Of a DNA stretch of 49,166 nucleotides, positions 20,159-44,444 are shown piece by piece. The DNA is from a virus. A model generated the notes under the pieces. It was given only the letters and a program-made list of their open reading frames with translations. It had not been told where the DNA came from and searched no databases. Position 1 is the stretch's first letter, and every line of letters starts with the position of its first letter. The position numbers and the translations under genes are program-made. The stretch spans positions 1 to 49,166 of IMG/VR virus record IMGVR_UViG_3300046642_000279; one strand, given 5' to 3'.

Positions 20159-20560
20159 CTATCTAACGGGCGGACTGGAACCCGCGATACCTGATGCCAC
20201 AGCCGCAGGTGCGGGTTCCGGCGTGTTCGCCTTCCGCCACACGAAATAGGCCGCTACAGCCGCGTACAGGAATGCGCCGATCTTCACTCCTAGATCACTA
20301 GGTATTTGAGCGAAGAACTGCGCGACCGCAATTGCTCCTGTGACGAACTGCATGATGGCCTTGTCGATGGCATCTTCTGTCGCGTTCTTGATGCCGATGA
20401 CTGCGACGACTCCAGCGCCGAGAGGGATCAGTGCGATCACTTTCGCCTGGAAGTCGCCGGTGACGTGGAACCCGAAAATGCTGCCGCCCGCGAACAGCGC
20501 GATGGCTGCGAACGCGAACACCAGCAAGCTGATGATTCCCTTGCTGTATTTCTGTATCAC
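20159..20560 (-). CDS. Putative holin (133 aa, three membrane segments)
   Basis: Three hydrophobic segments are visible: IISLLVFAFAAIALFAGGSIF, VIALIPLGAGVVAVIGI and IGAFLYAAVAAYFVW. A short Pro/Ala-rich tail ends in Arg. Size, topology and placement 11 bases after the amidase gene fit a class I-like holin that permeabilises the inner membrane to free the endolysin. It is the last gene before the hairpin and replication operon. An alternative is an accessory membrane protein, since another membrane protein precedes the amidase. Confidence 0.7.
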   Translation of the reverse strand: MIQKYSKGIISLLVFAFAAIALFAGGSIFGFHVTGDFQAKVIALIPLGAGVVAVIGIKNATEDAIDKAIMQFVTGAIAVAQFFAQIPSDLGVKIGAFLYAAVAAYFVWRKANTPEPAPAAVASGIAGSSPPVR

Positions 20561-20571
20561 TTGATGCCTTT

Positions 20572-21198
20572 CTATTTGCCCGGCTGGATCAGGTCGATCC
20601 CGTGATGCTTCCGGATGTTGTTGATCTCCTTGCGGAGCCGTTCCGTGTGCGGCGCGGTCGCATGGAGCTTGTGCGCGATGAAGAATTTGCCCAGGAGGAT
20701 CACATAGCCCTCCGGGTATCCGTCACCGCAGTCGCTGTGGCCGGAGCCGGAGATGCCCAGGTCCTTGTGCTGGAACACTCCGGCCCGTGTTATGGATGAG
20801 CCTGAGCAAGCGCCCTTCTCCAACGGCACCCCGTAGTGGGTGTGTCCGTAGGCCAGGAATTCGGCCGCGCCGTGGAGCTGGTTGTGGCGGTGCTTGTACC
20901 ACTCCTCCTTGGAGTAGGCGGCGAAGGCGATCTGCTCCAGCGACAGCGTGATGCTGTTGAAGTTGCAAACGGCCCAAGCCTTTGCTGCGTCCTCGACGTA
21001 GCGGCCGAACTTGCCCGCGACGTTCACGCCGATGTGAGCCGACGCTTCCTCCCCGTCGAAGATCGAGCCGAGCTGCTTCAGGTCGGCCATGTCGCTGGGG
21101 TTGTCGGACCCCTCGGTGGTGTGGAGGACCAGCCCGTGAATGCGAGCGCCCTCGCGACTCGACTGGTGCTTGGTGATGTGGGTGTAGTCAATGTCCAT
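20572..21198 (-). CDS. Endolysin, N-acetylmuramoyl-L-alanine amidase (Amidase_2/PGRP fold)
   Basis: This 208-residue enzyme cleaves the amide between MurNAc and L-Ala in peptidoglycan. Zinc ligands are H26 in GLVLHTTEG and H154 plus D156 or C157 in GSGHSDCGDGYP. The catalytic domain spans about residues 1-165, and the basic C-terminal helix region (HTERLRKEINNIRKHHG) may bind the wall. There is no signal peptide, so it probably depends on the holin. The start has an AAGGAG site 5 bases upstream. Confidence 0.85.
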   Translation of the reverse strand: MDIDYTHITKHQSSREGARIHGLVLHTTEGSDNPSDMADLKQLGSIFDGEEASAHIGVNVAGKFGRYVEDAAKAWAVCNFNSITLSLEQIAFAAYSKEEWYKHRHNQLHGAAEFLAYGHTHYGVPLEKGACSGSSITRAGVFQHKDLGISGSGHSDCGDGYPEGYVILLGKFFIAHKLHATAPHTERLRKEINNIRKHHGIDLIQPGK

Positions 21199-21207
21199 TG
21201 CGGCTCC

Positions 21208-21570
21208 TTATTTGAACTGCTCTTGGCAGTTGATGGGTGCGTATCTGTCGATGTCCCTTTTCAGGATTCTGATTTTTGGTTCCGAAAGTTCGATGGCCTG
21301 CTGGACGGTCAGGTGGAGAGCCTCCAGCACTTTCTTTCGCGGGTGTTCTGTTTCCTGAAGTTCATCTTCCTTTTCTTCGCGAAGCCCCAGTCGCAGCGGG
21401 TTTCCGCTCTGTTCGCAGCCTGCGATCAAGCTGTTTCGAAGTTCGTTTTCCTGAAGGCTGTGGAAGTAGAGATAAGCCCCCAGGGCAACTCCGGATGCGG
21501 CGATCACAGCGAGCAGCGCCATGACCGTCCATTTGATTCGAGACCGCCGACGCCGCCGCTCCGGCGTCAT
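21208..21570 (-). CDS. Single-pass membrane protein in lysis cassette (120 aa)
   Basis: Starting at ATG 21570 (TGATG joint) gives a basic N-terminus (TPERRRRRSRIKW), one transmembrane helix (about residues 14-36) and a charged coiled-coil-like periplasmic or external region. The topology resembles small lysis accessory or antiholin-like proteins. No specific family recognised. Confidence 0.65.
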   Translation of the reverse strand: MTPERRRRRSRIKWTVMALLAVIAASGVALGAYLYFHSLQENELRNSLIAGCEQSGNPLRLGLREEKEDELQETEHPRKKVLEALHLTVQQAIELSEPKIRILKRDIDRYAPINCQEQFK

Positions 21571-21866
21571 CAGTGAGCCGCCTGAATAACCAACGATGCG
21601 ACGGCAACGGTGAACATCATGCCGACCGCGATAGCGCCAAACAGACCGCGCTTGATCCATTTCATATCGTTCTTCATTTCTGCGATGTCGTCGCCTTGCT
21701 CTTCAACCTTCCCCTCTATTCTGATAAGGGCTTCACCACGGGTGCTCTCGCGTTCGCGGACGCGGGCGAGCGCGTCGTGATTGGACCTTGTGCGAGCGTC
21801 CATGCCCTTCATCCGCTCATCCATCCTGGCCATCCAGCCAGCATCTGAAAAAGACGCTCCCTCCAT
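21570..21866 (-). CDS. XhlA-like hemolysin / holin-associated protein (98 aa)
   Basis: A Met-rich, charged helical N-terminal two-thirds (KVEEQGDDIAEMKNDMKWIKR) leads into one C-terminal transmembrane helix (GLFGAIAVGMMFTVAVASLV). This is the layout of XhlA family proteins, which act with holins and amidases at the membrane. It is the first gene of the lysis cassette, joined to the minor tail gene by a one-base overlap. Confidence 0.7.
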   Translation of the reverse strand: MEGASFSDAGWMARMDERMKGMDARTRSNHDALARVRERESTRGEALIRIEGKVEEQGDDIAEMKNDMKWIKRGLFGAIAVGMMFTVAVASLVIQAAH

Positions 21867-41951: not shown

Positions 41952-42107
41952 CTACGGCTCGACCCTTATGACGATGGCTGCTCGTCCCTTTTTGATGTGT
42001 GCGTCCGCCTGCTTCTGCGCATGCGACTCCTGGTAGGTCGCGCCGTTGAGTGGCACCTGCGTCGTCGCATCGACGCACTGGAACATGGTCATCTGGAGCG
42101 TCGTCAT
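41952..42107 (-). CDS. Small hypothetical protein (51 aa)
   Basis: This 51-residue gene is joined by TGATG to the papain-like protease. It ends four bases before the portal ATG. The product has a central polar part (QESHAQKQADAHIKKGR) and a short hydrophobic end (AAIVIRVEP). It resembles small head-region proteins of unknown role. Confidence 0.65.
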   Translation of the reverse strand: MTTLQMTMFQCVDATTQVPLNGATYQESHAQKQADAHIKKGRAAIVIRVEP

Positions 42108-42880
42108 CAGATCACCTGGATGGCGCGGAAGTCAGAGGCGTAGCCGCCGAACAGGAAGCTCTCCGGAATCCAGACGTGCCCGGCGTCCATGACGTTCGGT
42201 CCCCAGGAGTTGCGCACCTCCAGGTAGCCGGGTTTCCATCCGATGATGCACATCTCGTGCCCACCCAGCCAGCCTTCGCCGGTCTGATAGTCGGGCATGA
42301 TGCCGGTCCGCATGCAGGCTTCGCCCTCAAACGACTGAGGCACCGACATGCCGAACGCGACAGGCTTGTGGTCCTGCACCAGGATCTTGCACTCGACGGC
42401 AGTTGAGCGCGCGTGCGTGTAGTGCTTGATCCGGTGTGCCTCAGCGTCGGCGTAGGCATCGTCGCTCGGCTTGTCAGCGAAGGCGGTGATGTTGTACGGC
42501 CAGACTGTCTCGGGTGGAGCGCCGGTCTTGCGGAGCGAGGCGAAGCCGTCGCGGCCGTAGGCTCCGGCGTCGGTGGTGACGGACCCCTCACGCAGGCGCT
42601 CGCAGTAGTAGATGAACAGACGGCTGGGCACTCCGAAGTCGGTGCCCGCCTTCATGTTGGCGTACTGGAGCAGCGCAGCGATGGCGTTCGCTGTGCAGGA
42701 GCCGAGCTGCCCCTGGTCATACACAGGCGGCATCTCCTCGCGCAAGCTGAAGGTGTCCGGCAGCGCCACTTCCTGCTGGAGGTTCGGCGGCGTAGCGAAG
42801 GCCATCACATCGCGGGCATCAGGAAGGCTCGGCATCCATCCGTAGTTGCGGACACCCAACAGCTCAGCTGCGTAGCTCAT
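42107..42880 (-). CDS. Papain-like (C1A) cysteine protease (257 aa)
   Basis: Starting at ATG 42880 (TGATG joint) gives 257 residues. PVYDQGQLGSCTANAIAALL supplies the oxyanion Gln and catalytic Cys 62, GGHEMCIIGW the His 208, and RNSWG the Asn 224: the Q-C-H-N order of papain. There is no signal peptide or evident pro-region beyond about 45 residues. C1A proteases are unusual between terminase and portal. It may process a virion or host protein. A longer frame from 43000 overlaps the terminase and was rejected. Confidence 0.85.
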   Translation of the reverse strand: MSYAAELLGVRNYGWMPSLPDARDVMAFATPPNLQQEVALPDTFSLREEMPPVYDQGQLGSCTANAIAALLQYANMKAGTDFGVPSRLFIYYCERLREGSVTTDAGAYGRDGFASLRKTGAPPETVWPYNITAFADKPSDDAYADAEAHRIKHYTHARSTAVECKILVQDHKPVAFGMSVPQSFEGEACMRTGIMPDYQTGEGWLGGHEMCIIGWKPGYLEVRNSWGPNVMDAGHVWIPESFLFGGYASDFRAIQVI

Positions 42881-42951
42881 CAAATCAGCCCCAGTATGCG
42901 TAGGATTACAAGGATCAAGAAAATCACAATCAGGATTCCGATGAGGGTCAT
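42880..42951 (-). CDS. 23-residue membrane micropeptide
   Basis: This tiny gene starts at ATG 42951, overlapping the terminase stop by ATGA. It ends at 42880, overlapping the protease ATG by TGATG. It fills the gap between two real genes exactly. The product (begins MTLIGILIVIFLILVI) is almost wholly Ile/Leu/Val/Phe with one Arg, a single transmembrane helix. It resembles DUF3309-type peptides in composition. Its role could be holin-like or membrane-targeting, but nothing in the sequence proves it. Confidence 0.7.
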   Translation of the reverse strand: MTLIGILIVIFLILVILRILGLI

Positions 42952-44444
42952 AGGTCGGCTCCAATCGTTTCGGGTTCCCAGGTCTCCTCGACGTGCTCAT
43001 GTTCGCGCGGCTGACCTTCCCAGAAGGCCATCACCACGGCATCGCCGTCGTCGGTGCTGCGGCCAAGTCGTTTGATAATGTCTTCCTTCGACTCGACCTG
43101 GATACGACCACCACTCATCACCTTCCAGTGCGGAGCGGTCAGATCGCCGGTAAGCATGTCGTCGGGCGGCAGCGCAATCGCCTCATAGGTGCTGTCGGGG
43201 TCCAGCAGCTCGCGTAGGTTCCACCACGACGCTGCGCGGCAGTTGACAAAGCCCAGCTCGCCTGTGGAGTCCAGCACCTCGGTGCGCTCGCTCGCGTTGA
43301 ATGGCTCGCAGGGAAGGCCAAGCTCTAACAGCCGGTCCACCACCCCTGCGCCGATGCCGATCACATCGACAGTCGCGATGGCTGTGCGATCTGCGGTGAG
43401 TACGCCCTTGATCACCCCGGTGGTCTCCATCGTGCCCTGCCGGGTGAAGCGCCTCAACTCGGTGAGCAGGTTTCCCCGTCGCAGGGCAAGCACGGTCTTG
43501 TCCTTGCCGGATCGCGCGATGTCACAGCCGACGTTCGCTAGGGGCGCGTCGAAGTCGTCATGCTCAAGGTGCCAGCGCTCGTTGGCCGCTTCCACCCAGC
43601 TCAGCGGGATGACGGTGTCCTCCTCGCTAGAGGCGAACTCGCCCAGCACGCGGTTGATGAACACGGCGCTCTCTGTGCCCCACTGCTTGGCGCGCTGCTC
43701 AGCCCATTCCTTCGACATCCGACCAGCGGCCTGCACTTCCTCCTTCGACACCGCGCGCACTGCCCAGTCCTCAGTGCCGGGCCGTCGCTTTTGAATGTCG
43801 TAGAAGCGTCCCTGCGGCTCTCCTGGGGTGCTGCTTGCTAGGGCGAAGGCTTCCGCCCCGGTGTCTGCTCCAGCGCCGGAGAACGCGCCCTCTGAGGCGT
43901 CGAAGGTCTCCTGGCTGATAGACTTGCTCTCATCATAGATGTAGAGCAGCTGGTCAGCGTGAGCGCCCTCGATTTTGGCTGGGTCGTCTGAGGCTACGGC
44001 GAACGCCTCACCCGTACGCAGTTTGATCGCCATGTCCAGCAGCTCGTCGCCTTCACGGAACGGCCTGCGCTCCAGCGTCTCCCAGTCCAGGCGGGCCGAC
44101 CACTTTTTGATCTCAGGCCAGAGGAATTTTTCGAGCTGCCTCCACACCGATGCGGTAGTCGGCACTTTCCAATCCTCAGCCATGGCGTCGCGGGTCAAGC
44201 TGAACCACAGCACGATCCACGCTGCCGTGGTGGTCTTGCCTAGCCCGTGCGGTCCGCGTAGGGACATGCGGTGCTCAATGACGATCCGGTCTAGCACCTC
44301 GTCCTGGTACGGCGTCGGCCCTGGATCGTCGGGCTTCCAGATGAAGCAGTTATGAACAAACCCTTTCGGGTCGTCGTGGTAGAGAGCAGCCCCTCGCATC
44401 GGCGGGTCGATGATGTTGGCTGCCTCAGCGAAGGCCGTAGTCAT
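42948..44444 (-). CDS. terL: Terminase large subunit (498 aa)
   Basis: This packaging motor has an N-terminal ATPase with Walker A GPHGLGKT (64-71) and Walker B LLYIYDES. The C-terminal RNase H-like nuclease has acidic residues in NVGCDIARSG (about 322), ATVDVIGIG and DDGDAVVMAF. It cuts concatemeric DNA and pumps it into the prohead. ATGA joints link it to the HTH/zinc gene before and the micropeptide after. Confidence 0.92.
   Translation of the reverse strand: MTTAFAEAANIIDPPMRGAALYHDDPKGFVHNCFIWKPDDPGPTPYQDEVLDRIVIEHRMSLRGPHGLGKTTTAAWIVLWFSLTRDAMAEDWKVPTTASVWRQLEKFLWPEIKKWSARLDWETLERRPFREGDELLDMAIKLRTGEAFAVASDDPAKIEGAHADQLLYIYDESKSISQETFDASEGAFSGAGADTGAEAFALASSTPGEPQGRFYDIQKRRPGTEDWAVRAVSKEEVQAAGRMSKEWAEQRAKQWGTESAVFINRVLGEFASSEEDTVIPLSWVEAANERWHLEHDDFDAPLANVGCDIARSGKDKTVLALRRGNLLTELRRFTRQGTMETTGVIKGVLTADRTAIATVDVIGIGAGVVDRLLELGLPCEPFNASERTEVLDSTGELGFVNCRAASWWNLRELLDPDSTYEAIALPPDDMLTGDLTAPHWKVMSGGRIQVESKEDIIKRLGRSTDDGDAVVMAFWEGQPREHEHVEETWEPETIGADL

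What the first reader, a model, noticed from the sequence alone, without database searches (positions are those of the whole stretch)
42880..42951. A 23-codon all-hydrophobic gene locked between terminase and protease
Stop-start overlaps at both ends (ATGA with TerL, TGATG with the papain-like protease) leave no spare base and are the rule for real genes in this genome. The product is one transmembrane helix with a single Arg. Such micropeptides are missed by gene callers. Placed just before a cysteine protease, it could anchor or regulate it, or act as a small holin-like or DUF3309-like peptide.
Basis: partly seen in the sequence, partly recalled or inferred. Interest (0 to 1): 0.75.

Follow-up and report, generated by a model that had tools for sequence, protein, structure and literature searches.

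The report
Host-like membrane micropeptide carried by phages
A 23-amino-acid, almost wholly greasy gene really is squeezed between two genes of this soil phage; it is an optional extra that sister phages lack, and it probably belongs to a tiny membrane-peptide family, missing from the family databases scanned, that soil actinobacteria and their phages share almost letter for letter.

Summary
The ORF is real: minus strand 42951-42880, MTLIGILIVIFLILVILRILGLI, with ATGA overlap to TerL and TGATG overlap to a C1A papain-like protease. It is the most hydrophobic of 60,398 stop-free 23-mers in the window; 18 of 22 codons have T at position 2 (0 of 200,000 shuffles). It is accessory: the two nearest relatives lack exactly this gene, and there the same TerL-embedded Shine-Dalgarno and ATGA start the protease directly. 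A 23-24-aa family M[TS]xVWILIVIILVLLxIALxRRxL, unmatched in Pfam, PHROGs, NCBIfam or the PDB, sits in the same TerL-portal interval of two related phages (L078, L017), elsewhere in two others (L124, L132), and in five chromosomal copies in four Solirubrobacterales/Actinomycetota genomes, four of them behind a SigB-type promoter match. Phage L078 and host L172 peptides share 23/24 residues over DNA differing at 18/72 bases: strong purifying selection. The window peptide is a divergent probable member (no unrelated one of about 300 transmembrane 23-mers scores as high; 11/23 identical to L017). Linkage to the protease is not supported, nor DUF3309 membership. Best reading: host-type membrane micropeptide cargo, translationally coupled into the late operon; that it acts on a host membrane partner is inference.

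The parts
42880..42951 (-). 23-aa single-helix membrane micropeptide gene, MTLIGILIVIFLILVILRILGLI
   Evidence: relatives in L017, L078; profile test against real transmembrane 23-mers
42948..42980 (-). 3' end of TerL (WEPETIGADL plus stop): carries the Shine-Dalgarno and the ATGA start for whatever gene follows
   Evidence: same end starts the protease in L001 and L014, the peptide in the window and L078, other small membrane ORFs in L081 and L020
42959..42962 (-). GGAG, Shine-Dalgarno-like, 7 nt before the micropeptide ATG, inside the TerL codons
   Evidence: sequence; same position before the protease ATG in L001 and L014
42889..42892 (-). GGGG, Shine-Dalgarno-like, 8 nt before the protease ATG, inside the micropeptide codons
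   Evidence: sequence
42107..42880 (-). C1A papain-like cysteine protease, 257 aa, triad C62, H208, N224 invariant in 11 aligned homologues
   Evidence: Pfam Peptidase_C1 E 6e-10; alignment A5
42948..44444 (-). terminase large subunit, 498 aa
   Evidence: phrog_2 E 7e-32
41952..42107 (-). 51-aa small gene between protease and portal, similar in L001
40289..41947 (-). portal protein, 552 aa, used as the anchor to collect relatives
   Evidence: phrog_10963 E 7e-64

Best explanation
The ORF is a translated accessory gene: a host-type single-helix membrane micropeptide that a lineage of phages of Solirubrobacterales-like soil actinobacteria carries as cargo in the packaging part of the late operon. 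Shown by sequence: an exact 71-bp presence/absence between TerL and protease; stop-start coupling on both sides, using the Shine-Dalgarno in the TerL 3' end and supplying a new one for the protease; a 23-24-aa homologous family in phages and in host chromosomes under strong purifying selection; a SigB-type promoter match before four of five host copies. Probable: the window peptide is a diverged member of that family. Inferred: made late in infection, it inserts in the host inner membrane and acts by helix-helix contact on the host membrane partner served by the chromosomal copy, keeping a stressed membrane or a membrane enzyme in a state useful to the phage until lysis. Rough odds: real gene 0.94, optional cargo 0.9, member of the family 0.7, host-mimic mechanism 0.4.
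For: Hydrophobicity and codon-position signal. Clean absence in L001 (TerL 91%, protease 84% identical) and L014. Family members with coupling on both sides in the same interval: L078 ATGA/GTGA, L017 ATGA/TAGTG. Members elsewhere: L124 near head genes, L132. Host copies L172-L176 beside TetR, glycosyltransferase, TIG/PASTA and HD genes. L078 vs L172: 23/24 aa, 54/72 nt, differences by codon position 3/1/14; random placement of as many changes leaves 12 of 23 residues on average, observed 22, 0 of 20,000 simulations. GTTT-N13-17-GGGTA upstream of four of five host copies, 5 matches in 80 kb in all; SigB consensus in PMC8346170. Window versus family profile: 41.4 against mean 3.9, sd 10.1; only a family member scores higher among 302 transmembrane 23-mers; shuffles p 0.0008-0.007.
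Against: The window copy lacks the family's Trp5 and C-terminal Arg-Arg and is only 7-11/23 identical, so convergence of greasy helices is possible; its codon comparison with L017 shows no significant constraint (p 0.09). No close relative shares the window's exact peptide, so its own conservation could not be tested. The host copy is rare (4 of 50 genomes of its family) and its function is unknown. Direction of transfer between phage and host is not shown. The host of this phage is not established.
Confidence: 0.6

Rival explanations
1. Membrane-active lysis or depolarisation peptide: an accessory holin-like or type-I-toxin-like helix that tunes the time of lysis.
For: A 23-aa nearly uncharged helix in a late operon; homologues of the neighbouring protease lie next to lysis-type genes in L008, L009, L010, L012 (neighbours read by eye). 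Other small membrane ORFs occupy the same interval in L081, L020, L019.
Against: The phage already has an endolysin and a holin-like ORF at 20159-21866; letter-level conservation of the family is more than a non-specific pore should need; host genomes keep it as a stand-alone chromosomal gene.
Confidence: 0.18
2. Superinfection-exclusion or anti-defence membrane peptide carried as a moron.
For: Optional cargo, single membrane helix, patchy across related phages.
Against: It lies inside the late operon without room for a promoter of its own, coupled to structural genes; no match to known immunity families except a very weak one (phrog_1039, E 2.1) for a different peptide in L019.
Confidence: 0.12
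3. Membrane anchor or regulator of the downstream papain-like protease.
For: Direct adjacency and a 1-nt stop-start overlap in the window.
Against: Protease without peptide in L001, L014, L011, L016, L022, L082; peptide separated from the protease in L078 and L017, and no protease found near it in L124, L132 and hosts.
Confidence: 0.06
4. Not a protein gene: a chance ORF or a translational spacer whose product does not matter.
For: The 5' overlap is inherited from the TerL-protease junction; the closest relatives do without it.
Against: Codon-position signal, top hydrophobicity, own Shine-Dalgarno for the next gene, and similarity to a family under purifying selection in the same interval.
Confidence: 0.05

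Closest known systems
Host chromosomal 24-aa peptide of Solirubrobacterales/Actinomycetota MAGs (L172-L176), found here; no library name
   Same: Length, start M-[TS]-[ILV], core ILIVI..L, single helix, stand-alone micropeptide gene
   Different: The window copy lacks Trp5 and the C-terminal ARRVL; host copies mostly have their own SigB-type promoter match and a strong Shine-Dalgarno, the phage copy is translationally coupled
DUF3309 (PF11752) and similar small stress-type membrane proteins
   Same: Very small, Leu/Ile-rich membrane protein
   Different: DUF3309 model is 50 positions; no match of the peptides to it; nearest sub-threshold hits are DUF5437 (E 0.3) and a 53-aa NCBIfam hypothetical model PRK13682 (E 0.13)
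Bacterial single-helix regulatory micropeptides (KdpF, CydX, AcrZ, MgrB types; from general knowledge)
   Same: Under 50 aa, one helix, act by binding a larger membrane protein
   Different: No sequence match; partner unknown here; none known to me as phage cargo beside a terminase
Phage holins, pinholins and superinfection-exclusion peptides (general knowledge)
   Same: Small phage membrane proteins, some made late
   Different: No family match; not in the lysis cassette; the family is shared nearly unchanged with host chromosomes

Membership tests
M[TS]xVWILIVIILVLLxIALxRRxL micropeptide family (defined here) | 23-24 aa, one helix, starting M-[TS]-[ILV] | tested here: met
   window MTL..., 23 aa
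M[TS]xVWILIVIILVLLxIALxRRxL micropeptide family (defined here) | Profile score above unrelated transmembrane segments | tested here: met
   41.4 vs mean 3.9 sd 10.1; only a family member higher among 302; shuffles p 0.0008-0.007
M[TS]xVWILIVIILVLLxIALxRRxL micropeptide family (defined here) | Trp5 and C-terminal Arg-Arg | tested here: not met
   window has Gly5 and ends RILGLI; therefore called only a probable divergent relative, not a firm member
M[TS]xVWILIVIILVLLxIALxRRxL micropeptide family (defined here) | Same genome neighbourhood with coupling on both sides (TerL-portal interval), as in L078 and L017 | tested here: met
DUF3309 (PF11752) | Match to the Pfam model | tested here: not met
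   no hit up to E 10; HMMER filters weaken this test for 23 aa
Holin | Match to holin families or place in the lysis cassette | tested here: not met
Holin | Membrane permeabilisation at the time of lysis | not testable with these tools
   needs an assay
Protease partner | Co-occurrence with the C1A protease | tested here: not met

The most novel reading that the evidence does not exclude
An undescribed, almost letter-for-letter conserved 24-aa membrane micropeptide, probably driven by a general-stress (SigB-type) sigma factor in Solirubrobacterales, has been taken up repeatedly by their phages and wired into the virion operon to act on a host membrane target late in infection; the window holds a diverged version.
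Probability: 0.4. Interest if true: 0.75.

Novelty: new variant of a known kind. Interest (0 to 1): 0.55.

Why it matters
Very small membrane genes are usually dismissed. Here comparative evidence shows that such a gene can be real, optional and shared between bacterial chromosomes and phages with nearly every residue fixed. It points to an unknown host membrane target that phages find worth manipulating in an abundant but little-studied group of soil bacteria, and it shows how a 71-bp gene can be slotted between essential genes without disturbing their translation.

Tried and rejected
tblastn of the peptides against annotated phages and plasmids gave nothing, expected with the low-complexity filter. 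A genome-contig scan with the portal alignment found no prophage. Pfam, PHROGs, NCBIfam and PDB sequence scans of the peptides gave no significant hit. A class-wide genome search showed the host gene is confined to a small clade (2 of 399, 4 of 50). A -1 frameshift fusion of peptide to protease was considered and rejected: no canonical slippery site at the overlap and the protease has its own start in relatives. Structure prediction was not run: a single helix would be uninformative.

Full report
Observation. Minus strand 42951-42880 encodes MTLIGILIVIFLILVILRILGLI. TerL's TGA (42950-42948) overlaps its ATG as ATGA, and its own TGA (42882-42880) overlaps the protease ATG as TGATG. It is the most hydrophobic of 60,398 stop-free 23-residue windows in all six frames (3.03 against 2.35 for the next), the only one of 347 ORFs of 18-45 aa with mean hydropathy of 2 or more, and 18 of 22 codons carry T at position 2, which 0 of 200,000 base shuffles reach. 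A chance ORF is very unlikely.

The junction. In the closest relative (L001, also held as L005 and L015; TerL 91%, protease 84%, portal 83% identical) the sequence reads ...GACATATGAGCTACGC: the TerL stop overlaps the protease start directly. L014 is the same. So the window has exactly 71 extra bases. GGAG in the TerL codons, 7 nt before the ATG, serves the protease in the relatives and the micropeptide here; the micropeptide's own codons bring GGGG 8 nt before the protease ATG. The 5' overlap is therefore a property of the TerL end, not independent evidence for the gene; the 3' overlap, hydrophobicity and homologues are.

What fills the interval in relatives. A wider portal-anchored scan shows the TerL-portal interval as a variable slot: no extra gene before the protease (L001, L014), hydrophilic ORFs of 45-57 aa (L011/L018, L022, L082), a 140-aa ORF (L016), other membrane ORFs right after TerL (L081 44 aa, L020 34 aa) or before the portal (L019 38 aa), and, in two phages, a clear micropeptide family: L078 MSIVWILIVIILVLLVIALARRVL directly after TerL (ATGA in, GTGA out, before a beta-helix/GH28 tailspike-like gene) and L017 MTLVWILIVIILVLLIIGLARRVL directly before the portal (ATGA in, TAGTG out).

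The family. DNA patterns from these peptides found further members in L124 (MTIVWILIVIILVLLVIALARRTL, near capsid genes, 70% GC) and L132 (MSVVWILIVIILVLLAIALIRRL), and in 84,980 bacterial and archaeal genomes only six hits, five of them chromosomal copies in four Solirubrobacterales/Actinomycetota MAGs (the sixth, Flavobacterium, is chance). The host gene is stand-alone with an AAGGAG(G)-type Shine-Dalgarno, next to TetR, glycosyltransferase, TIG/PASTA and HD-domain genes (for L175; similar neighbours read in L172, L174, L176). Four of five copies have GTTT-N13-17-GGGTA about 105 nt upstream; only five such matches occur in 80 kb of host loci, both strands; this is the SigB-type promoter form (PMC8346170). 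Within the host family 4 of 50 genomes carry it, within the class sample 2 of 399. L078 and L172 peptides agree in 23 of 24 residues while the DNA differs at 18 of 72 positions, 14 of them third positions; random placement of that many changes never leaves as many residues unchanged. The residues themselves are under selection, not only hydrophobicity.

Is the window peptide a member? It is 11/23 identical to L017 and 7-9/23 to the others, sharing M-T-L-[IV]-x-I-L-I-V-I with L017. Against the family profile (Met left out) it scores 41.4, whereas about 300 hydrophobic 23-mers taken from longer ORFs of the loci average 3.9 (sd 10.1) and none unrelated exceeds 32.9; shuffles of its own residues reach the score in 0.08-0.7%. 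It lacks Trp5 and the terminal Arg-Arg. I call it a probable divergent member.

Function. Co-occurrence argues against a protease partner: protease without peptide in L001, L014, L011, L016, L022 and L082; peptide apart from the protease in L078 and L017; no protease found in the DNA held of L124, L132 and the host loci. The protease is a sound C1A member with invariant C62, H208, N224. The phage's lysis genes are at 20159-21866. What is left is an optional membrane peptide, placed with the virion genes, that resembles a host peptide whose sequence is held nearly constant. The simplest mechanism is mimicry or supply of the host peptide, acting by helix contact on a host membrane protein late in infection; this step is inference. 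Lysis tuning or superinfection exclusion remain possible.

Known or not. No significant match in Pfam, PHROGs, NCBIfam or PDB sequences. A review of phage small proteins (PMC11323111) describes the kind but its main text has no transmembrane example like this one; other literature searches found nothing on this family. Limits: metagenome contigs could not be scanned; pattern scans miss diverged members; host assignment rests on the shared peptide only.

Noticed in passing
window 42948-44444 and L014:746-2104: Two TerL types with no detectable similarity over most of their length share the last 38 residues (55%), ending WEPxxIGAD[IL]; the tail recurs across about ten relatives with the same portal family. 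It may be a portal-docking tail or a recombination joint carrying the next gene's Shine-Dalgarno.
   Followed up: partly
L172, L174, L175, L176, upstream of the host micropeptide: SigB-type promoter match GTTTGG-N-GGGTAC at about -105 in four of five host copies, against an expected 0.016 per 250 nt.
   Followed up: yes
L008, L009, L010, L012: Homologues (about 40%) of the papain-like protease lie beside what read by eye as endolysin, Rz-like or holin-like genes in other phages, so this C1A family may have a role in lysis there.
   Followed up: partly
L078:2103-3650: A GH28/beta-helix tailspike-like gene sits between terminase and protease, outside the tail module.
   Followed up: no
L081:1657-1791, L020:4640-4744, L019:2549-2665: Other small, very hydrophobic ORFs of 34-44 aa, coupled to TerL or the portal, occupy the same interval; L020's is unrelated in sequence, L081 and L019 score weakly with the family.
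   Followed up: partly
window 20159-21866: Lysis cassette: amidase-type endolysin, 3-helix membrane ORF, holin-like ORF and one more membrane ORF.
   Followed up: partly
L173 and L174 (genome G002): One host genome carries two copies of the micropeptide, in different neighbourhoods.
   Followed up: no
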